64,000 nt of DNA from positions 1-64,000 of IMG/VR virus record IMGVR_UViG_3300030106_006724. One strand, written 5' to 3'. Position numbers and translations under genes: made by a program. Below, in pieces: positions 16,551-30,568 of this stretch. This stretch comes from a virus. Under the pieces are notes generated by a model that worked only from the letters and a program-made list of their open reading frames with translations, was not told the DNA's origin and ran no database searches. Position 1 is the first letter of the stretch; each line of letters begins with the position of its first letter.

Positions 16551-17402
16551 ATGGCAAAAAATGCTGTTTTATCATTAAGTGGAGGAATGGATTCTTCTAC
16601 GTTATTGTTACATTTACTAAGAGAAGGTTATAATGTAACTGCACTCTCTTTTGATTATGGTCAAAAGCATAGAGTTGAATTAGAAAGAGCTCAAGCTCTA
16701 GTTGATTACGTTAATAGTAACTGTAATCAAGTTGTAGGTACTGAACCTGATACAGGTGCAACTATTGCAAAATTAAAATATATGCCTGTTAATTATCAAG
16801 TGATTAAGATTGATGGAATTACTAATTTACTAAATTCTGCTTTAGTAGAAGGTGGAGATGATGTTCCGGAAGGTCATTATGAGCAAGATAATATGAAAGA
16901 AACTGTAGTTCCTAATAGGAATAAGATATTTTCTTCTTTAACGCAAGCTGTAGCTCTGTCTATTGCTAATAAAACTGGAGAAGATACCTATATATCATTA
17001 GGAATACATGCTGGAGATCATGCAGTTTACCCTGATTGTAGACAAGAATTTAGAGATGCTGATATGGAAGCGTTTCAAATAGGTAACTGGGATGCTGATA
17101 GAGTTAAATTCTATACTCCTTATCTAGAAATAGATAAATACGGAATACTTCAGGATGGACAAGAAAGTTGTTTAAGTTTAAATATTGATTTTAATGAGGT
17201 CTATAGTAGAACTAATACTTCTTATAAGCCTTACCCTTCTGGTAATAGCGATTATAAGTCTGCTAGTAGTGTGGAGCGTATCGAAGCTTTTATTAAACTG
17301 GGTATCGCAGATCCTGTTCAATACGAAGACGAGACTGGACCAGTGGATTACGAAGTAGCTAAAAATCATGTTGAAAAGGTTCTTGCTGAATATGCAGGAT
17401 AA
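16551..17402 (+). CDS. queC: QueC-like 7-cyano-7-deazaguanine (preQ0) synthase
   Basis: 283 residues. The PP-loop SGGMDSS (10-16) and the SFDYGQKHRVEL segment identify QueC, which turns 7-carboxy-7-deazaguanine into preQ0 with ATP and ammonia. Where bacterial QueC carries four zinc-binding cysteines before a VERxEAF-like segment, this protein has Ser, Asp and Ala (TSY...SDYKSASSVERIEAF), so the structural zinc site appears lost. It supplies preQ0 to QueF (29669) and DpdA (26955). It sits apart from the other que genes, behind the thioredoxin promoter. Confidence 0.85.
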   Translation: MAKNAVLSLSGGMDSSTLLLHLLREGYNVTALSFDYGQKHRVELERAQALVDYVNSNCNQVVGTEPDTGATIAKLKYMPVNYQVIKIDGITNLLNSALVEGGDDVPEGHYEQDNMKETVVPNRNKIFSSLTQAVALSIANKTGEDTYISLGIHAGDHAVYPDCRQEFRDADMEAFQIGNWDADRVKFYTPYLEIDKYGILQDGQESCLSLNIDFNEVYSRTNTSYKPYPSGNSDYKSASSVERIEAFIKLGIADPVQYEDETGPVDYEVAKNHVEKVLAEYAG

Positions 17403-18002
17403 ATGAGGATACTTTTAATAGCAAATGCTAGAACAGGTTCTACCGTACTTTATAAAGCTTTAAGTGATATCTTAGGTTTAAAAAAGTACGGTGAACCTTT
17501 CAATTATGGAATGCGCAGAAAAGCTAATTCCTTAATTAGAAAGTACCCTTTTCCTTTAGAAGATAACTGTATAGTAAAAACTTTAACAAGGCATATTCCG
17601 GAAGAATTCGAAAGCCAAGAAATTAATTTTTATGACGAATGGAAAAGAGATTTCGATAAAGTTATCTTATTAGCAAGAGAAAACCTACAGGATATATACG
17701 AAAGTCAAGATTTTTTTAGACATGTAAAAAAGCATTGGCATCAAAAGTACAAATACGAAACTCCTTATACTTTTAGAAGAGAACTTTATAAGTTTATTAC
17801 TGATTCTTACGATTATATAAAATGGTATAGTAAAAAATCTCACATACCTATTACATGGTACGAAGATTTATATAGTGGAGATAAAGAAAAAATAAAAGAA
17901 TGCATAGATAACTGGGAGATAGATATATCTGTAGATGATCTTTACAACTACGTAAACCCAGAAAAAAGATACAGACAATTTACTAAACAAACTATAATAT
18001 GA
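17403..18002 (+). CDS. sulfotransferase-like protein (copy 1)
   Basis: 199 residues. The N-terminal loop ARTGST (about 9-14) fits the 5'-phosphosulfate binding loop of P-loop sulfotransferases, followed by a Leu/Gly-rich helix and a later VILLAREN strand. PAPS could come from the APS kinase encoded directly downstream, which it overlaps by 4 bases. The acceptor is unknown. It lies in the glycan decoration block. Sequence is diverged, so a related nucleotide-binding fold cannot be excluded. Confidence 0.65.
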   Translation: MRILLIANARTGSTVLYKALSDILGLKKYGEPFNYGMRRKANSLIRKYPFPLEDNCIVKTLTRHIPEEFESQEINFYDEWKRDFDKVILLARENLQDIYESQDFFRHVKKHWHQKYKYETPYTFRRELYKFITDSYDYIKWYSKKSHIPITWYEDLYSGDKEKIKECIDNWEIDISVDDLYNYVNPEKRYRQFTKQTII

Positions 18003-18439
18003 TATACTGGTTTACAGGACAACCTGGCTCAGGAAAAACAGTACTAGCCGATTTACTTAAAGAACAAGCATTACCTCACGCTTATAGGATAGATGGTGAT
18101 GAAATGAGAGATTTATTTGAAAATAAAGATTATTCTATAAAAGGTAGAATAGCTAATATAGATGCAGCTCAAAAAATAGCTCATTATTTACATAATCAAG
18201 GTAAAGATGTAATAGTATCATTAGTTTCACCTTATCTTGATCAAAGAGAAGAATTTAAAAAGTTACTAGATTGGCAAATTAATGAAATATATGTTCATTA
18301 TACTAATGAAATTAGAGGTAGAGAAGAGTATCATGTGTTAGGGTATCAAGCTCCTCAATTTAATTACCTTGATATAAATACATCAGAGCAAACACCAGAG
18401 CAAAGTTTAGATATAATAAGAGAAAAACTTAAAGTATAA
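17999..18439 (+). CDS. cysC: adenylylsulfate (APS) kinase-like protein
   Basis: 146 residues. FTGQPGSGKTVLA is the P-loop, and RIDGDEMRDL and KGRIANI are typical of APS kinase, which makes the sulfate donor PAPS from APS. It is slightly shorter than bacterial CysC (about 200), mainly at the ends. The upstream neighbour is a sulfotransferase-like gene, and two more sulfotransferase-like genes follow at 22343 and 40717. APS would come from host ATP sulfurylase, since no clear phage copy is seen. Confidence 0.75.
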   Translation: MIYWFTGQPGSGKTVLADLLKEQALPHAYRIDGDEMRDLFENKDYSIKGRIANIDAAQKIAHYLHNQGKDVIVSLVSPYLDQREEFKKLLDWQINEIYVHYTNEIRGREEYHVLGYQAPQFNYLDINTSEQTPEQSLDIIREKLKV

Positions 18440-18440
18440 A

Positions 18441-18779
18441 ATGGAGAAAAAAAATACATACTTTGTAGATATAGATGGTACTATATTTAAGTATAGAAAA
18501 TTTGAAACTTACGAAACTAGTAAAGCTGAACCAATCCAAAGTACAGTAGACTATTTAAAAAATAAAAAAGAACATGGTCATATGATAGTATTAACCACAG
18601 CTAGACCTGACTGGTTATATGAGCATACAGTAAGAGAATTAAAAGTAAATGATATACCTTTCGATAGATTAATAATGGGTATTGAAAGAGGACCTAGATT
18701 TTTAATTAATGATAAGGATCCTAATATAAAAGAAGATAGAGCTACAGCAATTAATTTAATTAGAGATAAAGGAATATGA
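18441..18779 (+). CDS. small HAD-family phosphatase
   Basis: 112 residues. VDIDGTIF (about 9-16) is HAD motif I with both Asp residues, LTTARP is motif II, and INDKDPN near 90 is motif III/IV. No cap domain, so small phosphorylated substrates or a polynucleotide phosphatase-like role are possible. Its place after APS kinase suggests removal of a phosphate in nucleotide or sugar metabolism, but the substrate is open. Confidence 0.75.
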   Translation: MEKKNTYFVDIDGTIFKYRKFETYETSKAEPIQSTVDYLKNKKEHGHMIVLTTARPDWLYEHTVRELKVNDIPFDRLIMGIERGPRFLINDKDPNIKEDRATAINLIRDKGI

Positions 18780-19129
18780 AAAAATACAGTATGTTTATAG
18801 GTAGATGGCAACCATGGCATAAAGGTCATAGGTGGTTGATTGACCAAAGATTAAATGAAGGTAAAAACGTATGGATAGCTATTAGAGATGTAGAACCTAA
18901 CGAAAATCAACCCTGGACTCCTCAAGAAGTGATGGAGAATCTTGAAAAAGAATTATCAGATTTAATAAACGAAGGTAGAATATTTATAAGTATAATACCT
19001 GATATTGAATCAGTTAACTACGGAAGAGGAGTAGGTTATGAAATTATTGAACATATACCCCCTCAGAGCATAAAGGAAGTTTCAGCTACTAGTATTAGAG
19101 CTGAAATGAGAAAAGATGGAAAACTCTAA
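18776..19129 (+). CDS. small cytidylyl/adenylyltransferase-fold protein
   Basis: 117 residues. GRWQPWHKGH (8-17) contains the HxGH motif, and SATSIRAEMR near the end matches the ISxTxIR motif of the nucleotidyltransferase superfamily. The family adenylylates or cytidylylates small phosphates (NMN, phosphopantetheine, glycerol phosphate), and ATP sulfurylase shares the fold. At this size it is a minimal single domain. Overlaps both neighbours, so translation is coupled. Confidence 0.7.
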   Translation: MKKYSMFIGRWQPWHKGHRWLIDQRLNEGKNVWIAIRDVEPNENQPWTPQEVMENLEKELSDLINEGRIFISIIPDIESVNYGRGVGYEIIEHIPPQSIKEVSATSIRAEMRKDGKL

Positions 19130-19604
19130 AGTTTGGAATAAAGATTATTGTAAAGAAGTTATTAATTATTTCTGTAACGAACAAGTTATGGAAAATTATT
19201 CAAGTGATAATAGAAAATATAAAAGAAATTTATTATTTGAACGTGATAAAGGTAATAACTGGGTATGGAAATCAGTCGACAATCTTATAAAATCTAATCT
19301 TGGAGAAAATTATTTTTTATCTACTTGGTTGATAGGTTTAAGATATGATAAAAACGATTTTTTTACTGAGCATAGAGACGGAGAAGGAACTGCAAATAGG
19401 TACCTTTCCGGTGGAATAGAATTATCAGACCAAAATAGTTACAAAGGAGGTATTTACGTACTAAAAGGTAGTAATAGTAGGAGTAAACAAGGAGAGTTAT
19501 TTACTCACGATCCGTATGTACTGCATGAAATTACAAAAGTTACTAAAGGTACTAGATATAGTCTTCATTTTTGCATAGGGAAAAAACCTGATACTTTAAT
19601 TTAA
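19116..19604 (+). CDS. 2-oxoglutarate/Fe(II)-dependent oxygenase
   Basis: 162 residues with the double-stranded beta-helix signature: an HRD in TEHRDGEG (about 88-95), a distal His in VLHEITKV, and an Arg ten residues later (TRYSL) for 2-oxoglutarate. Such enzymes hydroxylate proteins, nucleobases or small molecules. It overlaps the nucleotidyltransferase gene by 14 bases and is TAATG-coupled to the DUF2061 gene. A substrate in the glycan/sulfation block is likely, but a DNA base is possible. Confidence 0.75.
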   Translation: MENSKVWNKDYCKEVINYFCNEQVMENYSSDNRKYKRNLLFERDKGNNWVWKSVDNLIKSNLGENYFLSTWLIGLRYDKNDFFTEHRDGEGTANRYLSGGIELSDQNSYKGGIYVLKGSNSRSKQGELFTHDPYVLHEITKVTKGTRYSLHFCIGKKPDTLI

Positions 19605-19813
19605 TGGTAGCTAAAAAAAGACATATAGTTAAGACAATAACTTGGAGAATAGTTGGTACTTTAGATACTTTTTTACTATCTTGGTTAATAACAGGTAGTG
19701 CTAAGATAGGAGCAGCTATAGGAGGAATAGAAATAGTAACGAAAATGATATTATACTATTTTCATGAAAGAGCATGGTATAAATTCAGTAAATTTGGTAT
19801 TAAAAAAAAATAA
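19604..19813 (+). CDS. DUF2061 membrane protein
   Basis: 69 residues, almost a full match to DUF2061: TITWRIVGTLDTFLLSWLIT near the start and HERAWYKF at the end, with two membrane helices (about 10-28 and 33-52). In bacteria this family is often found beside sulfate-activation genes, including cysC, which fits the APS kinase four genes upstream. Function unknown. Confidence 0.8.
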   Translation: MVAKKRHIVKTITWRIVGTLDTFLLSWLITGSAKIGAAIGGIEIVTKMILYYFHERAWYKFSKFGIKKK

Positions 19814-20533
19814 GTGAAAAATTTTGATATTTTAAGAACATCAGAATACGTAGTTACTGAAAGTAAACTTGTAAATAGCTTTAAGTCTAAATTTGAGTAT
19901 ATAGATATCAAAGTTGATCCTAATAATTATAGAGAAACTTATATTTTAAATAACGGAAACGAACCTCAAATTAGATATCAAATGCAATCCCAAGTTAGGA
20001 AGACAAAACTACAAGATATCTTAGTATATTTAAATTTTCCTATTAATTTTTTTAGTGATGATATTAAATCTACTACTCATGGTAATTTTGATTATAGTTT
20101 AGTAAAGCAATTCTGCGAAGAATTAGATATAGAAAATATTACTGGAAAAGAAATAGCTGAAAAATCAGGAGAATGGCGAGATCAATTCTTACCTGAACAG
20201 TATTGGTCTTTTATAAAATATGGACAATTAGGGGTTCCTTTAATTGATAGACCTCATCAATTATTTTTCGGTTCTTCTCATAGTTTATTTTCAGCTCATC
20301 TTGCTAAATTTAAATCAATGCCTTTATATATTCAAATTCCTAAACCTAAGAAAAAGTGGTTTATGAAGATGCCAGGTACAGTTTTTAAATCTAAATTTAC
20401 TTATTTATTTTATATAGATTTAGAGGAGAAAAGTTTATGGGGTAAAAAATCTTATGATCCTAATAGTTTAGGAGAAGGTTATGAGTTTAACGATGATGAA
20501 AAAAATTTAAATAACTATACTAAGTTGTTATGA
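19814..20533 (+). CDS. hypothetical protein
   Basis: 239 residues starting with GTG right after the previous stop. No known family recognised. The protein is rich in aromatic and charged residues, with a HQLFFGSSHSLFSAH stretch in the middle and a KPKKKWFMKM basic patch. No signal or membrane segments. It lies between DUF2061 and the second carbamoyltransferase block. Confidence 0.65.
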   Translation: MKNFDILRTSEYVVTESKLVNSFKSKFEYIDIKVDPNNYRETYILNNGNEPQIRYQMQSQVRKTKLQDILVYLNFPINFFSDDIKSTTHGNFDYSLVKQFCEELDIENITGKEIAEKSGEWRDQFLPEQYWSFIKYGQLGVPLIDRPHQLFFGSSHSLFSAHLAKFKSMPLYIQIPKPKKKWFMKMPGTVFKSKFTYLFYIDLEEKSLWGKKSYDPNSLGEGYEFNDDEKNLNNYTKLL

Positions 20534-20688
20534 TTAAAATAGATGTAAAAAAAGGTGATACTATTTTAGTAGGTCGCTTTAAAAATAAAAGAACTAAAGT
20601 AAAAACTATAGAGTATGATGAATTCGGTATGCCTATAATAAACGGTAGACCTGCTTGTACTTTTAGACTAGTAAAAAACCCAAGATAA
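20530..20688 (+). CDS. small hypothetical protein, 52 residues
   Basis: An ATGA overlap with the upstream gene and a TAATG overlap with the carbamoyltransferase gene support this 52-residue frame (MIKIDVKKGDTILVG at the start, ending RLVKNPR). It looks like a small beta-barrel, SH3-like, judging by alternating hydrophobic/charged strands. Function unknown. Confidence 0.65.
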   Translation: MIKIDVKKGDTILVGRFKNKRTKVKTIEYDEFGMPIINGRPACTFRLVKNPR

Positions 20689-22346
20689 TGTTACAATTAG
20701 GAATATCAGCCTTTTACCATGATTCTGCAGCTTGTATAGTTAAACATGGCGAAGTATTAGCAGCAGCTGAAGAAGAAAGATTTACTGAAATAAAACACGA
20801 TTCTTCTTTCCCTATTAATGCAATAGCATATGTATTATCAGAAGTAGGTATAGAAGATATAAACGATATAGATGAAGTATGTTGGTATGAAAAACCTAAA
20901 GTTAAAAAAAATAGGGTACTTAGAACGTTTAACAAGCATTTTTTCAAAACTTTTAAAAATAGACTTATTTTTCTTTATAACTATTATTTTAATTCTCCTA
21001 AAAATTTACTTAAACGTCATTTCCAATATAAAGGTATAATTAAATATACTGATCATCATTTATCTCATGCCGGTTTTAGTTATTATACCAGTCCTTTTAA
21101 AAATGCTGCTATTTTAACTGTAGACGGTGTTGGAGAATGGGAAACTATTACTATTTCTAAAGGTGAAGGTGCTGATATTACTAAAATGTATAGTATAGAC
21201 TTTCCTAATTCTTTAGGTATGCTGTATTCAACTGTAACAGCATTTCTAGGATTTAAACCTAACGAAGGAGAATACAAAGTTATGGGTTTAGCTCCTTTTG
21301 GAGATCCTTTAAAATATATTAATAAGCTATCTAAAATATTCGATAGAAAAGGTAATATTGATCAAAAATACTTTACATGGGAATATTCTGAAAAAATAAT
21401 GTTCAATATAGAATTTTGTAAACTTTTAGGATTACCTCCTAGATTTAAAGAAGAACCTATAACTCAAGATCATAAAGATTTAGCAGCAGCATTACAAAAA
21501 GTATACGAAAGAGAATTTGAAAAATTAGTACATAAAGCAAAAAAGTTAACTGGATCCCCTAATATTTGCTTAGGAGGCGGCTGCGCTTATAACGGAGTAG
21601 CTAATGTACTTGCCTATAATCATTTTAGATCAGTATATATTCCTTTTGCTCCTTCTGATGCTGGGTCTGCTATAGGAGCTTGTCTAATAAATAATCCTAT
21701 CTCAGGGTATGCAACTGATAATGGTTGTCCTTATTTAGGTAATGGTTATACTAATGAAGAAATTGAAAATATATTAGATAATTACAAAGATAAAGTTAAA
21801 GTACAATTATTTAATGAGAGTACTCTATTAGAAAAAACAGCTGAAATAATTAACGATCAGAAGATAGTTGCTTGGTTTCAAGGAAGAATGGAATTCGGTG
21901 CAAGAGCATTAGGAAATAGATCAATATTAGCTTCTCCTAGGGATGCAAGTATGAGAGATAAACTAAATAGAGTAATTAAAAAGAGAGAAGGATTTAGACC
22001 TTTTGCTCCTTCAGTTACAGTTAATCAAGCTTCTAAATGGTTTAATTTAAAACAAAGCGTACCGTATATGAATATAGTTTTACAAGCTAAGACTAATAAG
22101 TTTAAAGCAGCAACTCATATAGATGGATCATGTAGAGTACAGACAGTTGATAAATATCGAAATCCATTATATTTTAAACTAATAAAAGAAATAGGTAAAA
22201 AATCAGGTGCTGAAGTAGTTTTAAATACTTCATATAATCTAAAGGACCAGACTATTACTAGAACACCTCAACAAGCTATAGAAAGATTTTTAGATTCAGA
22301 TATAGATAATTTAGTTATAAATAAATTTTTAATTAGTAAAAAATGA
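20688..22346 (+). CDS. NodU/CmcH-type O-carbamoyltransferase (copy 2)
   Basis: 552 residues. It is a canonical member: GISAFYHDSAAC at the N-terminus, HHLSHAGFSYY, TVDGVGEWET, and in the C-terminal YrdC-like domain FGARALGNRSIL and REGFRPFAPSV. It is closer to the bacterial NodU/antibiotic-carbamoylation type than the copy at 11763. Its direct neighbour downstream is a sulfotransferase-like gene, an association typical of glycan decoration. Confidence 0.9.
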   Translation: MLQLGISAFYHDSAACIVKHGEVLAAAEEERFTEIKHDSSFPINAIAYVLSEVGIEDINDIDEVCWYEKPKVKKNRVLRTFNKHFFKTFKNRLIFLYNYYFNSPKNLLKRHFQYKGIIKYTDHHLSHAGFSYYTSPFKNAAILTVDGVGEWETITISKGEGADITKMYSIDFPNSLGMLYSTVTAFLGFKPNEGEYKVMGLAPFGDPLKYINKLSKIFDRKGNIDQKYFTWEYSEKIMFNIEFCKLLGLPPRFKEEPITQDHKDLAAALQKVYEREFEKLVHKAKKLTGSPNICLGGGCAYNGVANVLAYNHFRSVYIPFAPSDAGSAIGACLINNPISGYATDNGCPYLGNGYTNEEIENILDNYKDKVKVQLFNESTLLEKTAEIINDQKIVAWFQGRMEFGARALGNRSILASPRDASMRDKLNRVIKKREGFRPFAPSVTVNQASKWFNLKQSVPYMNIVLQAKTNKFKAATHIDGSCRVQTVDKYRNPLYFKLIKEIGKKSGAEVVLNTSYNLKDQTITRTPQQAIERFLDSDIDNLVINKFLISKK

Positions 22347-23107
22347 GATTAACAGGTACTGAAAATGTAAGAATAGTAGGAATACCTAAAAATGCAAGTC
22401 AATCTATTAAGAGAATAGGTTTAGATAACCCTAATATTTTTAACTGGGACTACGATATACCGAATGCTAATAGAGAAAAACATATACATTTTACTGAAAA
22501 AGAATTCTACAAAGAAGATTTAACAGTAATATTTCCTTTTAGAAACGAATGGGAAAGAGTAAAAAGCAATTTCCTTCAATTTTTTAGAGATCATTTAGAG
22601 TTAATAGGAGCATTTGATTCTCGAGATGAAGAAAAAAGTTATAAACGAGTTTTACATTTTATAAAAACCAGTCTTAAACGTCCTGAGCTTAATATAACTA
22701 ATAACCCTCGTAATCTAGTTATTAATACTGAATTAGATAATAGATTAAGTTATTTTAATGAAACAGTATTCAATTTTTTTATAGATAATATTTTTAATAA
22801 CAGTAACTGGAAAGGTATGAAGATGTACTTTGTTGATTTAGAAGCTTTACGTAAACAGCAATTTATAGATTGGCTTATAAAGTTAGATAGTAGATTTGAG
22901 GGTTGTACTGTTCCTGAAGCTAATTTAGCTTCTTCTAATTGGCATAAAACTTTAATAGTTAAAGCATTTAATGAAGTTCGAGATGAAAAACTATATTTAG
23001 ATTATACTAAATTATCTGACTGGAATACTAACGTTAAAGTTAATGTTGATAATAGTAGCAAGATTTGGAGATTGATAAAAAATACTAATTATTATAAAAG
23101 TATATAA
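22343..23107 (+). CDS. sulfotransferase-like protein (copy 2)
   Basis: 254 residues, ATGA-coupled to the carbamoyltransferase. GIPKNASQSI (about 13-22) resembles the PKNASTS-type PAPS-binding loop, and VIFPFRNEWERVKSNFLQF resembles the RNPxxRxxS second motif of sulfotransferases. Overall diverged. With APS kinase upstream, sulfation of the same glycan that is carbamoylated is a reasonable inference. Confidence 0.6.
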   Translation: MRLTGTENVRIVGIPKNASQSIKRIGLDNPNIFNWDYDIPNANREKHIHFTEKEFYKEDLTVIFPFRNEWERVKSNFLQFFRDHLELIGAFDSRDEEKSYKRVLHFIKTSLKRPELNITNNPRNLVINTELDNRLSYFNETVFNFFIDNIFNNSNWKGMKMYFVDLEALRKQQFIDWLIKLDSRFEGCTVPEANLASSNWHKTLIVKAFNEVRDEKLYLDYTKLSDWNTNVKVNVDNSSKIWRLIKNTNYYKSI

Positions 23108-23223
23108 TGAAAGAAGATAAAACTAAAGAGCAAATAGAGAAAGAAAAGAAGCTAGAAGAAGAATTTCAAAAAAAATTGAAAGAGCTTAAAAAAAGAGATC
23201 CATTTATTTATAAAAATTTTTAG
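23107..23223 (+). CDS. small charged helical protein, 38 residues
   Basis: ATG overlaps the previous stop (TAATG). The 38 residues are almost entirely Lys/Glu with Leu at intervals, as in a single coiled-coil helix, and end in a FIYKNF tail. Too short for a family call. The coupling to the upstream gene and the following promoter make it a plausible end of operon. Confidence 0.5.
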   Translation: MKEDKTKEQIEKEKKLEEEFQKKLKELKKRDPFIYKNF

Positions 23224-23229
23224 TAATAG

Positions 23230-23260
23230 TTGGATAATAGAATATTTATACTTATATTAT
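23230..23260 (+). promoter_or_regulatory. Bacteroidetes-type promoter of the queD-queE block
   Basis: TTG at 23230-23232, 20-base spacer, TATATTAT at 23253-23260. It is followed by a 40-base leader before the ATG at 23301, containing GTGTCGTAGCACCAC, which can fold as a short hairpin (GTG/CAC). Confidence 0.8.
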
Positions 23261-23300
23261 AGTATAATTAGTGTCGTAGCACCACTTTAAAAACACAAGA

Positions 23301-23561
23301 ATGAAAAAAGACGTATTAAAGGTTATAGAAAAAGAACTCTACGATAGAGATCTAAGATACAATTCACACAAAGAAGTTAACCTCGAAAACTTACCGAATA
23401 CCACCGAATATCCGGATGCTAAATTACACCAGATAATATCATTTATAAAATCTGGTATTAGGATAGCAGCTTGTATTGCTGGTATTATGGGCTACATATG
23501 GATTGGTTTCTTAGGACTTGCTATTGCAGAGGTAGTTGGTATAATAGAAGAATTAGTTTAG
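23301..23561 (+). CDS. small membrane protein
   Basis: 86 residues. The first about 45 are charged and the last about 40 are hydrophobic with many Gly/Ala/Ile (IAACIAGIMGYIWIGFLGLA), giving one long or two short membrane helices. No recognised family. First gene after a promoter, upstream of queD. Possible roles include superinfection exclusion or lysis timing, but nothing in the sequence decides. Confidence 0.65.
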   Translation: MKKDVLKVIEKELYDRDLRYNSHKEVNLENLPNTTEYPDAKLHQIISFIKSGIRIAACIAGIMGYIWIGFLGLAIAEVVGIIEELV

Positions 23562-23563
23562 TT

Positions 23564-24040
23564 ATGAATAAGAATAAATTTTTATCTACAAAAGTATTTG
23601 ATGGATTTAGTACAGTATTTCGTCAATGGAAAGCAGAAACTACTCACTGTAAATTTTTACACGGATATGGAGTATCTTTTAAGATTTGGTTCGAAGGGGA
23701 ATTAGATGAAAGAAACTGGGTATGGGATTTCGGTGGAATGAAAAGAGCCAAAGGAACTATTGATGGTAGATCTCCTAAAGAGTGGTTTGATTATATGTTT
23801 GATCATACATTTATAGTAGCAGAAGATGATCCATATTTAGAATCTTTTAATAAGATGGACGATGCTGAAGTTGCACAGGTTAGAGTAGTAGAAGCAACTG
23901 GAGCTGAAAAATTTGCTGAATTAGTTTATTATAAAGTTAATGAATTCATTACTTTAGAAACTGAAGGCAGAGTAAAAATAGCGAGAGTAGAATTTAGAGA
24001 GCACGGTAAAAATAGTGCTATATTTGAACCTAGTATATAA
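23564..24040 (+). CDS. queD: QueD-like 6-carboxytetrahydropterin synthase
   Basis: 158 residues from ATG 23564; a longer frame upstream only overlaps the membrane gene. The catalytic Cys lies in HCKFLHGYG, and WDFGGMK, FDHTF and EATGAEKFAE match the PTPS/QueD family. It would convert dihydroneopterin triphosphate from FolE2 to 6-carboxytetrahydropterin. The usual zinc-binding HGH is HGY here, and the early zinc His (F-x-AAH in E. coli) aligns with a non-His residue, so metal binding may differ. Confidence 0.8.
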   Translation: MNKNKFLSTKVFDGFSTVFRQWKAETTHCKFLHGYGVSFKIWFEGELDERNWVWDFGGMKRAKGTIDGRSPKEWFDYMFDHTFIVAEDDPYLESFNKMDDAEVAQVRVVEATGAEKFAELVYYKVNEFITLETEGRVKIARVEFREHGKNSAIFEPSI

Positions 24041-24042
24041 TA

Positions 24043-24819
24043 ATGTTAGGACGAGTTAAGAACTACGATAAAACCCTACCTATAGTTGAAGTGTATACTG
24101 CAGTTCAATCAGAAGGAAGTAGAGCTGGGTATCCTACAGTAGTTATTAGAACTACAGGATGTACTCATAGATGTTATTTTGGAGAAGGAGGATGGTGTGA
24201 TTCTTGGTATACTAGTATTCATGCTGAAAAAGGTAAATATACTTTTAATGATATTATTAAGATGTATGATGATAATCCTCAAATATCAGAAATGATGCTA
24301 ACAGGAGGTTCTCCTACTATGCATAAAAAACTAGTTAATGAATTAACACATTTTGCACATGAAAGAGATATTTTTATTACTATTGAGACTGAAGGTAGCC
24401 ATTTTCTTCCTACTGATTACCCTATTAACTTGCTTTCTATTAGTCCCAAGCTTAGTAATAGCGTCCCCGTACTTGGTGTACTTACTCCTCAAGGGGCAGT
24501 AACAGATCAAAAAATGATTGATAGACATAATAAATTTAGATTAAATTATGATGCTATCTCTAAACAAATTGAATATCATTCAGATTATCATATAAAACCT
24601 GTATGGGACGGTAAAGATCAAGATGCATTAAATGAAATAATGGACTTCATTGAAAAATTAAATATACCAAGGGATAAAGTATGGTTTATGCCTGCAGGTG
24701 ATAGTAGAGAATCTCTTTTTAAGTCATACCCAGTACTTTTTGATTGGGTTAGAGATAACGGTTATAGAATGACATGGAGACCTCATATTATAGCATTTGA
24801 AGATAAAAGAGAAGTTTAA
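24043..24819 (+). CDS. queE: QueE-like 7-carboxy-7-deazaguanine synthase (radical SAM)
   Basis: 258 residues. VYTAVQSEGSRAGYPTVVIR and TTGCTHRCYFGEGGWCDSWY mark QueE. The iron-sulfur cysteines are spaced C-x3-C-x7-C rather than the usual radical SAM C-x3-C-x2-C. TGGSPT is the SAM-binding GGE-like motif. It contracts the pterin ring to 7-carboxy-7-deazaguanine, the substrate of QueC. It follows queD by two bases and is TAATG-coupled to a phosphoribosyltransferase. Confidence 0.88.
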   Translation: MLGRVKNYDKTLPIVEVYTAVQSEGSRAGYPTVVIRTTGCTHRCYFGEGGWCDSWYTSIHAEKGKYTFNDIIKMYDDNPQISEMMLTGGSPTMHKKLVNELTHFAHERDIFITIETEGSHFLPTDYPINLLSISPKLSNSVPVLGVLTPQGAVTDQKMIDRHNKFRLNYDAISKQIEYHSDYHIKPVWDGKDQDALNEIMDFIEKLNIPRDKVWFMPAGDSRESLFKSYPVLFDWVRDNGYRMTWRPHIIAFEDKREV

Positions 24820-25217
24820 TGGATAAAACTTTTATTACATGGAATCAGGTAAATAAATTACTCGACAAAATCCATGACCAAACTCAAGGAGGATTTGATT
24901 ATGTTTCTGGAATACCTAGAGGGGGATTAATTTTGGCAGTATTGTATTCGCATAGATTTGGAGTTGAATTTATGGAATACCCTAGTAATCATTATCATAA
25001 TTTATTAATTTTAGATGATATAGCTGATAGTGGTAAAACATTAAAAAAATGGACTGAAAAATTAAATATTCCTTACTTTGCTACTCTTCATTATAAGAGA
25101 AGTTCATGCGTAGAACCAGATTTTTACGGCAGAAAAATGATAAAAGAAGATAGATGGATAGTATATCCTTGGGAAAATAAAGACTCAAAAACTATACAAA
25201 ATTATTTGGAAAATTAA
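24819..25217 (+). CDS. purine phosphoribosyltransferase-like protein
   Basis: 132 residues. LLILDDIADSGKTLK is the PRPP-binding signature of type I phosphoribosyltransferases, and SGIPRGGLIL is the preceding substrate loop, closest to xanthine/hypoxanthine (Gpt-like) enzymes. Within the que cluster it could salvage guanine released when DpdA swaps bases in DNA, which is an inference from context. The FolE2 promoter -33 element lies in its last codons. Confidence 0.75.
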   Translation: MDKTFITWNQVNKLLDKIHDQTQGGFDYVSGIPRGGLILAVLYSHRFGVEFMEYPSNHYHNLLILDDIADSGKTLKKWTEKLNIPYFATLHYKRSSCVEPDFYGRKMIKEDRWIVYPWENKDSKTIQNYLEN

Positions 25218-25236
25218 ATAAAATTACTTATATTAT
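25206..25236 (+). promoter_or_regulatory. Bacteroidetes-type promoter of folE2-dpdA operon
   Basis: TTG at 25206-25208 (inside the end of the phosphoribosyltransferase gene), 20-base spacer, TATATTAT at 25229-25236. It ends 4 bases before the FolE2 ATG, so a leaderless transcript is expected. Confidence 0.75.
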
Positions 25237-25240
25237 AGAT

Positions 25241-26260
25241 ATGAAAGACGATAAAGCAAAAGGTTACGAATGGATAGGAGATGCAGACGAAACTGTAGAA
25301 GCTCCAGCTAATGAACATTCAGTGAAATACTACGAACCTGATAGAGATTATGATTCTAAATATAATCCTACTAAAGATGATATTAAAACGTTTCCTGATC
25401 TTCAAAATGGTCCTTCTTCTTTGATTCAAGGGTCTCCTGTCGCTATACAGCAGGTAGGTATTCATAATTTTAGATTACCTTTAAAGTATAGCAAGAGAGG
25501 AGGTGGTGATATAGAATTAGAAACTAAAGTTACTGGTACGGTTTCTTTAGCGGCTCATAAAAAAGGTATTAATATGTCTCGTATCATGAGATCATTTTAT
25601 GAATATAAAGATGATTATGTATATGACAAGTTAGATGAAATATTATTAAAGTATAAAGAAAATTTAGAGACCTTTGATGCTAAAATAGGATTACATTTTT
25701 CTTACCCTATATTACAACCTTCATTAAGATCAGATAATGCAGGTTATCAATATTATAACTGTACTTTAGAAGGTAATATAGATGATAAAGGTAATTTTAG
25801 AAAGTTTTTACATTTCGATTTCGTTTATTCATCTGCTTGTCCTTGTTCTTATGAATTAGCAGAGCATGCTAGAAAATATAGAAATAAAGCAACAGTATCT
25901 CATTCTCAAAGATCTGTAGCAAGAATATCTATTGAATTTGACGATATAGTATGGATTGAAGATTTACAAGAGATGTGTGCTAATGCTCTACAGACTGAAA
26001 CTCAAGTAGTTGTTAAAAGAGAAGATGAGATGGCATTTGCTGAATTAAATGGTTCTTATCTTAAGTTTGTAGAAGATGCTGCTAGATTACTATATGAGCA
26101 GTTAATAGAGGATAAAAGAGTAAAAGATTTTAGAGTTATTTGTTCTCATCAAGAGTCATTACATTCTCATGATGCTGTTTCAGTAATTACAGCTCCTGAT
26201 AGTGAATTTTGTCAAGATGTTCCTCATGAGTTATGGTCAAGTTTAATTCATATATCATAA
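25241..26260 (+). CDS. folE2: GTP cyclohydrolase IB (FolE2)
   Basis: 339 residues. SSACPCS (about 199-205) holds the catalytic/metal cysteine, followed by VSHSQRS, and VSLAAHKKGINMSR near 108-121 is also typical of FolE2. It has an acidic N-terminal extension of about 50 residues relative to bacterial enzymes. It makes dihydroneopterin triphosphate from GTP, the first step to 7-deazaguanines. It is the metal-flexible type IB enzyme, not FolE1. Overlaps the cupin gene by one base. Confidence 0.88.
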   Translation: MKDDKAKGYEWIGDADETVEAPANEHSVKYYEPDRDYDSKYNPTKDDIKTFPDLQNGPSSLIQGSPVAIQQVGIHNFRLPLKYSKRGGGDIELETKVTGTVSLAAHKKGINMSRIMRSFYEYKDDYVYDKLDEILLKYKENLETFDAKIGLHFSYPILQPSLRSDNAGYQYYNCTLEGNIDDKGNFRKFLHFDFVYSSACPCSYELAEHARKYRNKATVSHSQRSVARISIEFDDIVWIEDLQEMCANALQTETQVVVKREDEMAFAELNGSYLKFVEDAARLLYEQLIEDKRVKDFRVICSHQESLHSHDAVSVITAPDSEFCQDVPHELWSSLIHIS

Positions 26261-26796
26261 TGTCTAAAATTGAAGAATTAAAAAAATTATGTGGTGAGTT
26301 AAGAACTTTAACTGAACAGACTTTTGATGAGGTTAAGAGTGATAAATATTCTAAATATGAAGATGCTTTAAGATCTTTTATTGATAAGTATGAAATAGAT
26401 CATAGACCATGGGGTAAGTACGAAGTAATGTACAGTAGTCCTTTTGTAAAAGTAAAGAAGATAATAGTTAAACCTCGAGGTATATTATCTTATCAGTATC
26501 ATGATCAAAGAACTGAGGATTGGATAATTACTAGAGGAAGCGCTAAAATAGTACTTGATGATGAAGAGGTATGGAGAACTGAAGGAGAAAGAATTAGAAT
26601 AAAAGTAGGACAGAAGCATAGAGTTAGTAATCCTAGTTTTGATAATATATTAGAATTTATAGAAGTGCAAACAGGAACTTACTTTGGAGAAGATGATATA
26701 ATCAGAATAGAAGATGATTATGGTAGATTAGAAGACGAGCATTTAAGAGATCATGATATAAAAGGAGGAATAATTAATAGTTATGAAAAAAAATAA
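26260..26796 (+). CDS. mannose-6-phosphate isomerase type II-like cupin
   Basis: 178 residues from the ATG at 26260 (TAATG overlap); an upstream in-frame ATG lies within folE2. HRPWGKYEVMYSSPFVKVKK and the cupin strand segments SYQYHDQRTEDWIITRG and VGQKHRVSNP match the cupin domain of bifunctional ManC/PMI type II. It would feed mannose phosphate toward GDP-mannose, used by the GDP-mannose epimerase and dehydrogenase genes at 55-62 kb. No guanylyltransferase domain is attached. Confidence 0.8.
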   Translation: MSKIEELKKLCGELRTLTEQTFDEVKSDKYSKYEDALRSFIDKYEIDHRPWGKYEVMYSSPFVKVKKIIVKPRGILSYQYHDQRTEDWIITRGSAKIVLDDEEVWRTEGERIRIKVGQKHRVSNPSFDNILEFIEVQTGTYFGEDDIIRIEDDYGRLEDEHLRDHDIKGGIINSYEKK

Positions 26797-26962
26797 AAGT
26801 TTAGCAGAATATATAGTTGAAATAGATGGTAAGCAATATGTACCTTACAGTAAAGCTGTAGAGGCGATAATGCAATCCGTAAGTAGAGAAGTAAGAGAAG
26901 CTATGGATGAAGTAGCTTCCGGAATGAAGGATGTAAATAGTTTATTAGAAGATAATGATTAA
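26783..26962 (+). CDS. small hypothetical protein, 59 residues
   Basis: Starts within the end of the cupin gene and overlaps the dpdA start by 8 bases, typical translational coupling here. 59 residues, mostly helical and charged (EAIMQSVSREVREAMDEVAS). No family recognised. Confidence 0.6.
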   Translation: MKKNKSLAEYIVEIDGKQYVPYSKAVEAIMQSVSREVREAMDEVASGMKDVNSLLEDND

Positions 26963-27770
26963 AATAGCGCACGAATCTCCTAAGAGTATTTTTGATGATG
27001 TACAGAAAGTAACTGACTACGATTACGCTCTAGTTCATTTATTAGAAGAAGACGAACAGTATCTTAAGCATTTTCAACAAGCTATTAAAAAAGGAAGAGA
27101 AGTAATTTTAGATAATTCAATATTTGAATTAGAAGAAGCTTTTGAAGCTGAAAAATTTGCATACTGGGTTGAAAAATTAAGACCTGAATGGTATATAGTA
27201 CCTGATGCTTTAGAAAACTCTCTTCTTACCATGGCTCAGATGGAAAAATGGAACTCTCAGTATAAAAACCTTCCCGGTAAAAAAATTGGAGTAGTACAAG
27301 GTCAAACTTATCAATCTATTATAGACTGTTATAAGTATATGGATTATGTAGCTGATGTTGATATGATAGCTATATCATTTGATTACTCTTATTATACCGA
27401 ATCAGTACCTCATGCTAATAAGTACGTTAGTTGGATGTTAGGTAGAATAAAATTATTAGGAGACTTACTTAAGCATGGTATAATAAATAAAAATAAACCT
27501 CATCACCTTTTAGGATGTGGATTACCTCAAGAATTTAGCTTTTATAAACATTCAGATTACGATTGGTTATACTCTTTAGATACTTCTAATCCAGTAGTTC
27601 ACGGTATCAAAGGTATTAAATATGGTGATGATGGTTTGTGGAGCAAAGAATCTCAAAAACTTTATGAATTAATTAATTATGAAGTTGAAGATACTAATAT
27701 AATAATGAATAATATACAAAAATTTAGATGGTTAACTAATGGGAGACACAAAGTGGATATCGTTCTTTAG
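26955..27770 (+). CDS. dpdA: DpdA-like DNA-guanine transglycosylase
   Basis: 271 residues. It fits the phage TGT-like family that exchanges guanine in DNA for 7-deazaguanine bases: VILDNSIFELEEAF (about 50-63), IVPDALENS, KIGVVQGQT, HHLLGCGLPQEF and YSLDTSNPV in a TIM-barrel order. The Asp residues in LDNS and PDAL and in SLDTS are candidate catalytic residues. It lacks the zinc-binding Cys cluster of tRNA-guanine transglycosylase. It overlaps the formyltransferase gene by 32 bases, and the whole preQ1 pathway is encoded around it. Confidence 0.85.
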   Translation: MIKIAHESPKSIFDDVQKVTDYDYALVHLLEEDEQYLKHFQQAIKKGREVILDNSIFELEEAFEAEKFAYWVEKLRPEWYIVPDALENSLLTMAQMEKWNSQYKNLPGKKIGVVQGQTYQSIIDCYKYMDYVADVDMIAISFDYSYYTESVPHANKYVSWMLGRIKLLGDLLKHGIINKNKPHHLLGCGLPQEFSFYKHSDYDWLYSLDTSNPVVHGIKGIKYGDDGLWSKESQKLYELINYEVEDTNIIMNNIQKFRWLTNGRHKVDIVL

Positions 27771-28302
27771 TCAAACAGGATCTGAAATAGCTGATATATC
27801 TGAAGCATTAGGACAAGCTCCTGATGTTATTATTACTAATGATAGACCCGATCATCTTAGAACTATAGATGAAAGAATAGAAAAGCAAGGTTATTTTACC
27901 TGGGCTAATAAACCTTCAGAAGAAGATTATATTAGTTTATTAGAAGCTTATCCTGATGCAATAGTTACTTTACATGGTTGGTTAAGAATAGTACCTCCGT
28001 ATGTCTGTGAACGTTCTAAAATTTATAACGGTCATCCCGGTCTGATAACTAAATATCCAGAACTAAAAGGTAAAGATCCTCAAGAGAAAGCTTTTAAATT
28101 ACAACACGAAGTTATGGGGTGTGTACTTCATGAGGTTTCTCCTGGAGTAGATGAAGGGAAAATACTAATGGAAGAAAGATTTAACTCTCATGGGTTGGAT
28201 CTTAACGGAGTTTTTCGTACCTTAAGAGATAGAAGTTTATACATGTGGATTAAATTTTTAAGAATAGCTTTAATTCATCAAAATTATTATAATGATAACT
28301 AG
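27739..28302 (+). CDS. formyltransferase, candidate DpdN (dPreQ1 N-formyltransferase)
   Basis: 187 residues. It has the 10-formyl-THF-dependent formyltransferase fold of PurN/Fmt: FSQTGSEIADIS, YNGHPGLITKYPELKG (catalytic Asn and His) and GVDEGKIL (catalytic Asp). It begins inside dpdA, so translation is coupled. A formyltransferase named DpdN has been proposed for phages whose DNA holds 7-(formylamino)methyl-7-deazaguanine; position and fold suggest this role here. GAR transformylase is the alternative, but no other purine synthesis genes are present. Confidence 0.75.
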   Translation: MGDTKWISFFSQTGSEIADISEALGQAPDVIITNDRPDHLRTIDERIEKQGYFTWANKPSEEDYISLLEAYPDAIVTLHGWLRIVPPYVCERSKIYNGHPGLITKYPELKGKDPQEKAFKLQHEVMGCVLHEVSPGVDEGKILMEERFNSHGLDLNGVFRTLRDRSLYMWIKFLRIALIHQNYYNDN

Positions 28303-28813
28303 AATAGCTTTAGTAGGAGCAAGTAGTACAGGAAAAACTACTGTATTTGAATTACTTAAAAATAAATTACCTAAGTATGAATTCGTTAATGAATCGACTC
28401 GTACTATAGGTAACTATGGTTTTCCTATAAATGAACAAGGTACTGATGCTACTCAATTAGCTATTAGTAGCTTTCATTTAGAAGCTTTACTTCAACCTAA
28501 TAATTTAGTATTAGATAGATGCTATATGGATGTAGTAGTTTATTCTAAATTTATGGAAAATTTAAGAGCTAGAACTTATAATTATATTGAAGATACTTGG
28601 AATAGAATAAAAAAAGAGTATACTCATTATATTTATTTTCCTATTGAATTTGATTCAGTTGATGATGGAGTAAGGAGTATAGATGAGACTTGGAGAAAAG
28701 ATATAGATGATGAATTCCAAGCTGTATTAGAAGGAGTACGAAAACCTTATTTAACTGTTACTGGATCCCCGATGCAGAGAATTGAACAAATATTAAAATT
28801 TATAAATGAGTAA
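28292..28813 (+). CDS. P-loop kinase/ATPase (NadR- or AAA_28-like)
   Basis: 173 residues. VGASSTGKTT (8-17) is the P-loop, and LDRCYMDVVVY is a Walker B-like strand with a DRxxxD pattern, as in the kinase domain of NadR. NadR-type folds phosphorylate nicotinamide riboside or other nucleosides. It lies between the formyltransferase and MazG-like genes, so a nucleoside or base intermediate is a possible substrate. Confidence 0.7.
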   Translation: MITRIALVGASSTGKTTVFELLKNKLPKYEFVNESTRTIGNYGFPINEQGTDATQLAISSFHLEALLQPNNLVLDRCYMDVVVYSKFMENLRARTYNYIEDTWNRIKKEYTHYIYFPIEFDSVDDGVRSIDETWRKDIDDEFQAVLEGVRKPYLTVTGSPMQRIEQILKFINE

Positions 28814-29318
28814 ACAATTAGAACTAGACTTTGGCGGTCCTGAAAAATATGTACCTTTCGTTTCAGAGGTAGAAGAATTTAATGCCACGTTTGGCAAACC
28901 TAATAATTATGAACCAACTATTCCAGAGAAAAAAGAATGGCAATTCGTCTATGACTTTATTCTCGAAGAACTTGAAGAATATAGAGAAGCTTGCGAAAGA
29001 GGAGACATCGTCGAAGTTTTGGATGCTCTTTGCGATATTGCTTACGTTTCCATTGGGAACGGTACTATGTTACATGGCCTTAAGGATAAGATATGGCCTG
29101 CTTATCAAGAAGTACAAGCGTCTAATATGTCAAAAGCTTGTACTACTGAAGAAGAAGCAAAAGAAACTGTCGCCCTCAGAACTAAAGAACAGGGTGAAGA
29201 GTGTTATTATGAAAAAGTAGGTGACTATTATATAGTATACCGAAAAAGAGATAAAAAGGTTATGAAATCTATAAATTATTTCAGACCAGATTTAAGTAAA
29301 TTTTTAAAAAATGTATAA
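28806..29318 (+). CDS. MazG-like nucleotide pyrophosphohydrolase
   Basis: 170 residues. FILEELEEYREACERGD and EVLDALCDIAYV are the metal-binding EExxE...ExxD pattern of MazG/dUTPase-like all-alpha pyrophosphatases. SNMSKACTTEEEA in the second half also matches phage relatives. Such enzymes remove unwanted nucleotides or ppGpp-type alarmones. It overlaps the upstream kinase and downstream nuclease genes by 8 bases each. A second frame (28882-29220) inside it is a shadow. Confidence 0.8.
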   Translation: MSKQLELDFGGPEKYVPFVSEVEEFNATFGKPNNYEPTIPEKKEWQFVYDFILEELEEYREACERGDIVEVLDALCDIAYVSIGNGTMLHGLKDKIWPAYQEVQASNMSKACTTEEEAKETVALRTKEQGEECYYEKVGDYYIVYRKRDKKVMKSINYFRPDLSKFLKNV

Positions 29319-29676
29319 ATACGGAGCAAAATTAGTTAGAGTAGTCGATGGAGATACAGCTGATGTAATGATCGACTTAGGTTTTGATACTTGGGTTAAG
29401 GCTAGACTTAGATTTAAAGGAGTTGATACCTGGGAAAAAAGAACTAGAAATAAAGAAGAAAAAATAAAAGGTTTAGCTGCTACAGCTTTTACTGCAACTT
29501 ATTTAGAAAAGAATAAAGGTAATTTTACTATTCAATCATACGGTAAAGGTAAGTACGGTAGAGTTTTAGCAGAGATCTTTATAGATGGAGAAGAAAAATC
29601 TCTTAATCAGTTATTAATAGAAAATGGTCATGCGTATATTTACGAAGGCGGTAAAAAACAAGTATTTAATGGATAA
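29311..29676 (+). CDS. staphylococcal nuclease-like (SNase/thermonuclease) protein
   Basis: 121 residues. VVDGDTADV, ARLRFKGVDTWE (catalytic Arg and Glu) and GKYGRVLAEIF (second Arg) follow the SNase pattern. No signal peptide, so it acts in the cytoplasm, probably on host DNA or RNA. If phage DNA carries deazaguanine this could help tell host from phage DNA, which is speculation. It overlaps queF by 8 bases (ATGGATAA). Confidence 0.85.
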   Translation: MYKYGAKLVRVVDGDTADVMIDLGFDTWVKARLRFKGVDTWEKRTRNKEEKIKGLAATAFTATYLEKNKGNFTIQSYGKGKYGRVLAEIFIDGEEKSLNQLLIENGHAYIYEGGKKQVFNG

Positions 29677-30568
29677 TCAAAGTAAAGTAAAAGAAATAGC
29701 AGGTAAACATTTAGGTAAAGTAGGTGGAGCCGGCTATAGCGATCAGTATAATAGAGACTTATTAGTAAAAGTTCCTAGAAAGTTAAATAGAGAAACTTAT
29801 AATCTTTCTGGAAATGAATTTGTAGGAGTTGATACATGGAATGCATATGAAGTATCTGCTATTACTACTAAGGGTCAACCTGTAGCGGGTATGTTAAAAA
29901 TAGTATGCCCTTCTAACTCTGAATTTCACGTAGAATCTAAGTCTATAAAGTTATATTTAAATTCTCTTAATATGACTAAGATAGGAGATACAGCTAAAGA
30001 CTGTATTAAAGGTATAGAAGCTACAGTTAAAAGAGATTTAGATGAATTATTAGAAACTAATACGACTGTATCTTTTTATGCTGATGATTCAGAAACTACT
30101 CCTCTATCCTTTAAAGATTATGAAGATGTAGCCGAAATTGCTAATTTAGATGAAATAGATTTTACCTCTTTTAAATCTGATGCTTCTCAGTTAGAAGCTC
30201 AAGATAATGATGAAGTAGAAGAATTAAGGTATAGATCTAACTTATTAAGATCGAACTGTAGAGTAACTAATCAACCTGATTGGGGTGATGTATTTATCTA
30301 TCTTAGAGGTAAAAAATTACCTACTGCAGCTTCATTAGCAAAGTATATAGTAAGCCATAGAACTGTAAGTCATTTCCATGAAGAGATATGTGAAATGGTA
30401 TTTGCTCATTTATGTGAAGCATTTCAACCAGACCAATTAATGGTTGCATGTTTATATACTAGAAGAGGAGGTTTAGATATTAATCCTATTAGAGCTACTC
30501 ATTCTAGTTTAATACCAGAATTTTTTACTAATCCTGATTTTACTATTCAAAAAACTTTAAGGCAGTAA
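29669..30568 (+). CDS. queF: QueF, NADPH-dependent preQ0 reductase (long, two-module type)
   Basis: 299 residues from ATG 29669; a 45-base in-frame extension upstream lies in the nuclease gene. The QueF motif ESKSIKLYLNSLN and the catalytic cysteine in LLRSNCRVTNQPDWG are both clear, in the order found in the long E. coli-type enzyme. A Phe-His-Glu segment (HFHEEICE) completes the site. It reduces the nitrile of preQ0 to the amine of preQ1. This makes the phage pathway complete from GTP to preQ1. Confidence 0.88.
   Translation: MDNQSKVKEIAGKHLGKVGGAGYSDQYNRDLLVKVPRKLNRETYNLSGNEFVGVDTWNAYEVSAITTKGQPVAGMLKIVCPSNSEFHVESKSIKLYLNSLNMTKIGDTAKDCIKGIEATVKRDLDELLETNTTVSFYADDSETTPLSFKDYEDVAEIANLDEIDFTSFKSDASQLEAQDNDEVEELRYRSNLLRSNCRVTNQPDWGDVFIYLRGKKLPTAASLAKYIVSHRTVSHFHEEICEMVFAHLCEAFQPDQLMVACLYTRRGGLDINPIRATHSSLIPEFFTNPDFTIQKTLRQ

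What the first reader, a model, noticed from the sequence alone, without database searches (positions are those of the whole stretch)
16551..30568. Complete phage pathway for 7-deazaguanine DNA, predicted to end in formylated preQ1
FolE2 (25241), QueD (23564), QueE (24043), QueC (16551) and QueF (29669) cover GTP to preQ1. DpdA (26955) would exchange DNA guanine, and a PurN-like formyltransferase starts inside dpdA (27739) with intact Asn, His and Asp catalytic motifs. A phage formyltransferase called DpdN has been proposed to make 7-(formylamino)methyl-7-deazaguanine. Full pathways including QueF and a coupled formyltransferase in one phage are uncommon. Product identity is inference.
Basis: partly seen in the sequence, partly recalled or inferred. 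Interest (0 to 1): 0.85.

Follow-up and report, generated by a model that had tools for sequence, protein, structure and literature searches.

The report
Phage pathway for formylated 7-deazaguanine DNA
This uncultured relative of a Flavobacterium phage carries all the genes needed to build a modified guanine from GTP, swap it for guanine in its DNA and add a formyl group; the same gene set is already annotated in a cultured phage and is routine in this phage lineage, but a tightly linked kinase-like gene with no known place in the pathway and a QueC enzyme without its zinc site are unexplained.

Summary
Genes for FolE2, QueD, QueE, QueC, QueF, a DpdA-type transglycosylase and a PurN-fold formyltransferase are intact at the stated places. 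The formyltransferase fails the PurN equivalog cut-off (42.7 vs 150.1 bits), lies apart from PurN in a tree, keeps the catalytic Asn/His/Asp in all 48 homologues, and has an acid in place of the GAR-phosphate-loop Asn. It occurs almost only beside DpdA and QueF, so a preQ1-type amine is the likely acceptor and formylated dPreQ1 in DNA the likely product (inferred, not shown). The rarity claim is wrong: cultured Flavobacterium phage immuto has the same gene order, and 40 of 44 DpdA-recruited viral loci with room carry the formyltransferase. Its DpdA is related to those of Campylobacter phages whose dG is reported 100% replaced, so heavy replacement is plausible. A new member of a known kind, with two testable oddities.

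The parts
16551..17402 (+). QueC-type 7-cyano-7-deazaguanine synthase lacking the four zinc cysteines
   Evidence: PF06508 E=9.3e-38; SGGMDS, YxQxHxxE, VPxRN, YPDC kept, C(x)8CxxCxxC reads S/D/S/S in the alignment
23564..24040 (+). QueD-type 6-carboxytetrahydropterin synthase, phage type
   Evidence: PHROG 2389 E=2.8e-40; C27, H31, D70, H71, E110 kept, H16->F and H33->Y as in phages Iggy and RHEph04
24043..24819 (+). QueE-type radical SAM 7-carboxy-7-deazaguanine synthase (Cx3Cx7C)
   Evidence: PHROG 2076 E=1.2e-53; motif common to this cassette family
24819..25217 (+). Phosphoribosyltransferase-like protein, in the cassette of close relatives; role unknown
   Evidence: PF00156 E=4.4e-10; conserved position
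25241..26260 (+). FolE2 (GTP cyclohydrolase IB), replacing FolE1 of relatives
   Evidence: NF010200 273 bits vs cut-off 215; gene-for-gene replacement relative to L003; no FolE1 found in the record
26955..27770 (+). Compact DpdA-type guanine transglycosylase
   Evidence: 76.5% to immuto DpdA, about 41% to Campylobacter CP220/CPt10; AF2 pLDDT 93.3, Foldseek top hits TGT and DpdA 7ui4; D53, D84, Q115, D209 invariant in 46
27739..28302 (+). DpdN-like formyltransferase (presumably 10-formyl-THF-dependent), predicted preQ1/dPreQ1 formyltransferase
   Evidence: PF00551; N97, H99, D138 invariant in 48 homologues; separated from PurN/PurU/Fmt/ArnA in a tree
28292..28813 (+). AAA_28 deoxynucleoside-kinase-like P-loop protein, linked to DpdA
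   Evidence: PF13521 E=8.4e-19; profile and fold nearest deoxynucleoside kinases and the NadR kinase domain; co-occurrence
28806..29318 (+). MazG/PRA-PH-like nucleotide pyrophosphohydrolase, in the cassette of close relatives
   Evidence: PF01503 E=1.9e-10; near DpdA in 23 of 44 DpdA-recruited loci
29669..30568 (+). QueF, bimodular NADPH-dependent preQ0 reductase
   Evidence: PF14819 and PF14489; catalytic Cys, Asp, His, Glu and ESKS motif align with E. coli QueF
31925..34252 (+). Family A DNA polymerase downstream of the cassette, conserved neighbour in near relatives
   Evidence: PF00476 E=6e-58; 69% to immuto

Best explanation
The phage makes preQ1 from GTP with its own enzymes (FolE2, QueD, QueE, QueC, QueF), a compact DpdA-type transglycosylase exchanges guanine for the 7-deazaguanine, and the DpdN-like enzyme transfers a formyl group from 10-formyl-tetrahydrofolate to the aminomethyl group, so that virion DNA carries 7-(formylamino)methyl-7-deazaguanine in place of much or all of its guanine and escapes host restriction. 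Shown here: gene content, conserved active-site residues, fold of DpdA, exclusion from the PurN equivalog family, and genetic dependence of the formyltransferase on DpdA and QueF. Inferred: the product, the order of steps, the extent of replacement and the protective effect.
For: Complete set of intact genes. DpdA has the TGT fold, with DpdA 7ui4 among the hits, and TGT-like D53/D84/Q115/D209 invariant in 46 sequences (Q115 and D209 aligned to E. coli TGT). The formyltransferase keeps N97, H99, D138 in 48 of 48, scores 42.7 bits against the PurN equivalog (cut-off 150.1; E. coli PurN 281), and is split from PurN, PurU, Fmt, ArnA and cyanophage PurN by a branch of support 0.998. The Asn of PurN's phosphate loop (SGNGSN) is an acid in 48 of 48 (SQTGSE). 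Formyltransferase-recruited loci with room upstream all hold DpdA. QueF accompanies it in 80 of 82 loci versus 3 of 9 without it. Same gene order in cultured immuto. DpdA is 41% identical to those of CP220 and CPt10, whose dG is 100% replaced by dADG (PMC8306585).
Against: No chemical data for this phage. Loci are related by descent, so the co-occurrence test overstates independence. The published DpdN paper could not be read. QueC lacks the zinc motif that helps define canonical QueC, and QueC, QueD, QueE and QueF fall below the strict NCBIfam equivalog cut-offs, so those steps rest on PHROG/Pfam matches and motif conservation. A kinase-like gene in the cassette has no role in this scheme.
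Confidence: 0.72

Rival explanations
1. Nucleotide-level replacement: the compact DpdA exchanges guanine on a deoxynucleoside or nucleotide rather than on DNA, the deoxynucleoside-kinase-like protein phosphorylates the product, in near relatives a MazG-like enzyme lowers dGTP, and the phage polymerase incorporates the modified dNTP, giving complete replacement (compare the dNMP kinase of T4 and the MazG-like enzyme of S-2L, from general knowledge).
For: Kinase near DpdA in 56 of 71 loci not recruited by the kinase; it stays with DpdA where DpdN and QueF are absent nearby, including Campylobacter CP21 and CP220, and dG of CP220 is 100% replaced. 66 of 75 kinase-recruited loci hold DpdA and 5 more hold DpdN and/or QueF. 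Nearest folds are deoxynucleoside kinases, thymidylate kinase and the NadR kinase domain. The kinase query matched only Streptomyces, Campylobacter, Bacteroides, Flavobacterium and Rhodococcus phages plus one unnamed record, not the Escherichia, Vibrio, Mycobacterium or Salmonella phages where other DpdA types occur. DpdA is only 271 aa, acidic (median pI 5.2) and lacks the TGT zinc subdomain. A modified dGTP route had been proposed for Campylobacter phages (PMC6884629).
Against: 15 of 91 loci lack the kinase. Known DpdAs and TGTs act on polymer. Low pI is weak evidence: E. coli TGT is 6.0 and Iggy DpdA 5.9. The kinase also occurs in Streptomyces phages, with no DpdA or Que gene found in the stretch read. 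The MazG-like gene is confined to the near relatives.
Confidence: 0.22
2. The PurN-like protein is a GAR transformylase supporting purine synthesis during infection, and merely sits next to dpdA.
For: PurN entries are its best PDB sequence matches.
Against: Fails the PurN equivalog cut-off, separate in the tree, acid in the phosphate loop, constant linkage to DpdA and QueF. Only two matches in 84,980 genomes.
Confidence: 0.03
3. It is a sugar-nucleotide N-formyltransferase serving a phage glycan pathway; the window has glycosyltransferases, a UDP-sugar dehydrogenase, an epimerase and an aminotransferase at 51-61 kb.
For: PF00551 includes such enzymes, and weak PDB matches to VioF and PseJ exist; sugar genes are present.
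Against: The gene is more than 20 kb from those sugar genes and in related contigs sits in the Que/Dpd cassette.
Confidence: 0.03

Closest known systems
Flavobacterium phage vB_FspM_immuto_2-6A 7-deazaguanine cassette (NC_055915)
   Same: Same order: QueC, QueD, QueE, PRT, GTP cyclohydrolase, DpdA (76.5%), formyltransferase (53%), kinase (67%), QueF (60%), PolA (69%); zinc-less QueC too
   Different: immuto has FolE1; this phage has FolE2 and additional cupin and SNase genes in the cassette; the MazG-like gene lies upstream of dpdA in immuto and downstream of the kinase here
DpdN, proposed dPreQ1 formyltransferase (Cui et al. 2023, NAR; paper not held, from memory)
   Same: PF00551-type enzyme beside DpdA and QueF
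   Different: Could not compare sequences with the paper; in the phage collection only immuto has a close homologue
Campylobacter phages CP220, CPt10, CP21 (full dADG replacement reported for CP220 and CPt10)
   Same: DpdA about 41% identical and the kinase next to it in CP21 and CP220
   Different: No formyltransferase found in CP21, searched whole; no Campylobacter phage among the QueF matches listed
[quoted passage not shown]
   Same: QueF-family protein with dPreQ1 in DNA
   Different: Partial replacement (1.7% and 30% of G); no DpdN-like match in the phage collection

Membership tests
DpdN (dPreQ1 formyltransferase) | Formyltransferase family with catalytic Asn, His, Asp | tested here: met
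   PF00551 above cut-off; N97, H99, D138 invariant in 48
DpdN (dPreQ1 formyltransferase) | Encoded with DpdA and QueF | tested here: met
DpdN (dPreQ1 formyltransferase) | Sequence relation to the published DpdN | tested here: inconclusive
   Paper not held; immuto is the only close homologue among cultured phages; Cellulophaga phi38:2 and phiST lack it
DpdN (dPreQ1 formyltransferase) | Makes formylated dPreQ1 | not testable with these tools
   Needs LC-MS or an enzyme assay
PurN (GAR transformylase) | Equivalog score TIGR00639 | tested here: not met
   42.7 vs cut-off 150.1; E. coli PurN 281
PurN (GAR transformylase) | SGNGSN phosphate-binding loop | tested here: not met
   SQTGSE; acid at the Asn position in 48 of 48
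DpdA / TGT superfamily | TGT TIM-barrel fold | tested here: met
   AF2 pLDDT 93.3; the 12 best Foldseek hits are TGT or DpdA
DpdA / TGT superfamily | Nucleophile Asp and base-recognising Gln | tested here: met
   D209 and Q115 align with E. coli TGT (low-probability profile alignment, supported by motifs); invariant
DpdA / TGT superfamily | TGT zinc-binding C-terminal subdomain | tested here: not met
   Protein ends at 271 aa with no Cys cluster
DpdA3 subfamily (name from memory) | Subfamily of full-replacement phages | tested here: inconclusive
   Direct tblastn relatives in cultured phages are only immuto and the Campylobacter CP220 group; the subfamily definition could not be read
QueF (preQ0 reductase) | Catalytic Cys, Asp, His, Glu and ESKS motif | tested here: met
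   Alignment with E. coli QueF
QueF (preQ0 reductase) | TIGR03138 equivalog cut-off | tested here: not met
   239.4 vs 293.45 bits; a QueF-L-like activity cannot be excluded by score alone
Canonical QueC | SGGxDS, YxQxHxxE, VPxRN, YPDC | tested here: met
Canonical QueC | Zinc motif C(x)8CxxCxxC | tested here: not met
   S/D/S/S in 30 rows including the window; CCCC in 52 rows including E. coli
FolE2 (GTP cyclohydrolase IB) | NCBIfam equivalog cut-off | tested here: met
   273 vs 215 bits
dTMP kinase (for 28292-28813) | TIGR00041 equivalog cut-off | tested here: not met
   21.9 vs 83.25 bits

The most novel reading that the evidence does not exclude
Complete guanine replacement in the compact-DpdA phages (immuto-type and Campylobacter) is carried out on nucleotides before replication: DpdA makes a 7-deazaguanine deoxynucleoside or nucleotide and the linked deoxynucleoside-kinase-like protein activates it, rather than DpdA editing finished DNA.
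Probability: 0.22. Interest if true: 0.8.

Novelty: new member of a known kind. Interest (0 to 1): 0.45.

Why it matters
It adds many uncultured members to a little-studied class of phage DNA base modification and makes two open points testable: how some phages replace every guanine while others replace a few percent, for which the linked kinase is a concrete suspect, and whether QueC needs its zinc site. The in-place exchange of FolE1 and FolE2 between close relatives suggests that the phage needs to supply its own GTP cyclohydrolase step.

Tried and rejected
A fully zinc-free pathway was considered (FolE2, zinc-less QueC, DpdA without the zinc subdomain). Dropped: QueD's altered metal ligands are shared by other phage QueDs such as Iggy and RHEph04, and immuto keeps FolE1. 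Weak kinase-profile hits in kinase-less loci proved by eye to be a clamp-loader-like ATPase. The Streptomyces phage Karimac protein next to the kinase homologue is not DpdA. The HD-domain protein upstream of DpdA in CP220 is an HD plus AAA_33 fusion, not clearly a dGTPase. Cellulophaga phi38:2, phiST, Chryseobacterium MA9V-3, CP21 and Karimac have no DpdN. Literature: the DpdN paper is not held; searches for DpdN, fdPreQ1 and formylated 7-deazaguanine returned no held paper with those terms. A plain profile search of PDB sequences with DpdA found nothing significant.
Full report
Observation. The window is bases 1-64000 of an 89,200-base IMG/VR virus record. Family matches: QueC PF06508 E=9e-38, QueD PTPS, FolE2 GCHY-1 E=6.5e-70, QueF PF14819 and PF14489, formyltransferase PF00551 above cut-off; QueD and QueE are clearest in PHROGs. 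DpdA has no Pfam hit but is 76.5% identical to the annotated DpdA of Flavobacterium phage immuto and about 41% to a protein of Campylobacter phages CP220 and CPt10. The formyltransferase start lies 32 bases inside dpdA; close packing or overlap is usual in relatives.

DpdA. An AlphaFold2 model from 42 homologues (pLDDT 93.3) matches tRNA-guanine transglycosylases and the solved DNA preQ0 insertase DpdA 7ui4. D53, D84, Q115 and D209 are invariant in 46 sequences. A profile alignment to E. coli TGT, weak by probability, places Q115 and D209 on the IIQG and FDC motifs; D53 and D84 are assigned by motif order only. The protein is short (271 aa), acidic, and lacks the TGT zinc subdomain.

Formyltransferase. 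It scores 42.7 bits against the PurN equivalog (cut-off 150.1) while E. coli PurN scores 281. In a tree with PurN, PurU, Fmt, ArnA and cyanophage PurN, all DpdN-like sequences lie on the other side of a long branch of support 0.998. N97, H99 and D138 are invariant in 48. The GAR-phosphate loop SGNGSN reads SQTGSE, with E (47) or D (1) at the Asn position, which argues against a phosphate-bearing GAR acceptor. Only two of 84,980 bacterial and archaeal genomes hold a match, so the family is essentially viral at this sensitivity.

Context. 46 viral loci were fetched by the formyltransferase; those with sequence upstream hold DpdA. Of 44 nonredundant loci recruited by DpdA with at least 4 kb downstream, 40 hold the formyltransferase, 40 QueF and 38 the kinase. 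Across 91 loci QueF accompanies the formyltransferase in 80 of 82 and is present in 3 of 9 without it (Fisher p=3e-6, ignoring relatedness). This dependence is what an enzyme formylating a preQ1-derived amine predicts. The claim that such pathways are uncommon is therefore wrong for this lineage, and cultured immuto has the same order. Family A polymerase, 69% to immuto and 23-29% to the next best listed, places the phage in the immuto lineage, so a Flavobacteriia host is likely (inference).

QueF. The catalytic Cys, Asp, His and Glu and the ESKS motif match E. coli QueF, although the score is below the strict equivalog cut-off (239.4 vs 293.45). PMC6884629 notes that phage QueF and QueF-L are hard to tell apart by sequence, but that two such phages carried dPreQ1.

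Kinase. Its profile and AlphaFold2 model (pLDDT 90.7) are nearest to deoxynucleoside kinases, the NadR ribosylnicotinamide kinase domain and thymidylate kinases. It lies near DpdA in 56 of 71 loci not recruited by it. Of 75 further loci recruited by the kinase itself, 66 hold DpdA and 5 hold DpdN and/or QueF. It directly follows DpdA in Campylobacter CP21 and CP220, where no DpdN or QueF lies nearby, and dG of CP220 and CPt10 is reported 100% replaced by dADG (PMC8306585). The kinase query matched phages of Streptomyces, Campylobacter, Bacteroides, Flavobacterium and Rhodococcus and one unnamed record, none of Escherichia, Vibrio, Mycobacterium or Salmonella. This suggests that the compact DpdA and the kinase form a module for full replacement, perhaps acting on nucleotides; that step is inference, and 15 of 91 loci lack the kinase.

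QueC and FolE. In 30 of 84 aligned QueC rows, including this one and immuto, all four zinc cysteines are replaced while SGGxDS, YxQxHxxE, VPxRN, YPDC and the essential Tyr are kept in the window protein. Against sister contig L003 (DpdA 95% identical, and 18 loci) DNA similarity stops at 25248 and resumes at 26259, bounding FolE2 here and FolE1 there; the record has no FolE1 match.

Verdict. A new member of a known kind, with an unexplained kinase and a zinc-less QueC worth testing.

Noticed in passing
window:28292-28813: Deoxynucleoside-kinase-like AAA_28 protein conserved beside compact DpdA in immuto-type and Campylobacter phages; role in 7-deazaguanine replacement unexplained.
   Followed up: partly
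window:16551-17402: QueC without the zinc-binding cysteines but with intact catalytic motifs; 30 of 84 aligned rows share this.
   Followed up: partly
window:25241-26260 versus L003:7850-8493: Gene-for-gene exchange of FolE1 and FolE2 between close relatives, with sharp borders at the gene ends.
   Followed up: yes
window:24819-25217: Phosphoribosyltransferase-like gene kept between QueE and FolE in near relatives; role unknown.
   Followed up: no
window:20688-22346: Carbamoyltransferase (PF02543/PF16861) gene upstream of the cassette, also in several relatives; substrate unknown.
   Followed up: no
L112:12411-13040: Protein starting MCAISG that by eye resembles a class II glutamine amidotransferase, near QueC; its family is in 12 of 80 neighbourhoods; no Pfam hit.
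   Followed up: no
L115:289-825: Peptide deformylase family near the cassette in 11 of 80 neighbourhoods.
   Followed up: no
window:36103-37746 and window:8590-10305: Phage-encoded GroEL and ribonucleotide reductase large subunit.
   Followed up: no
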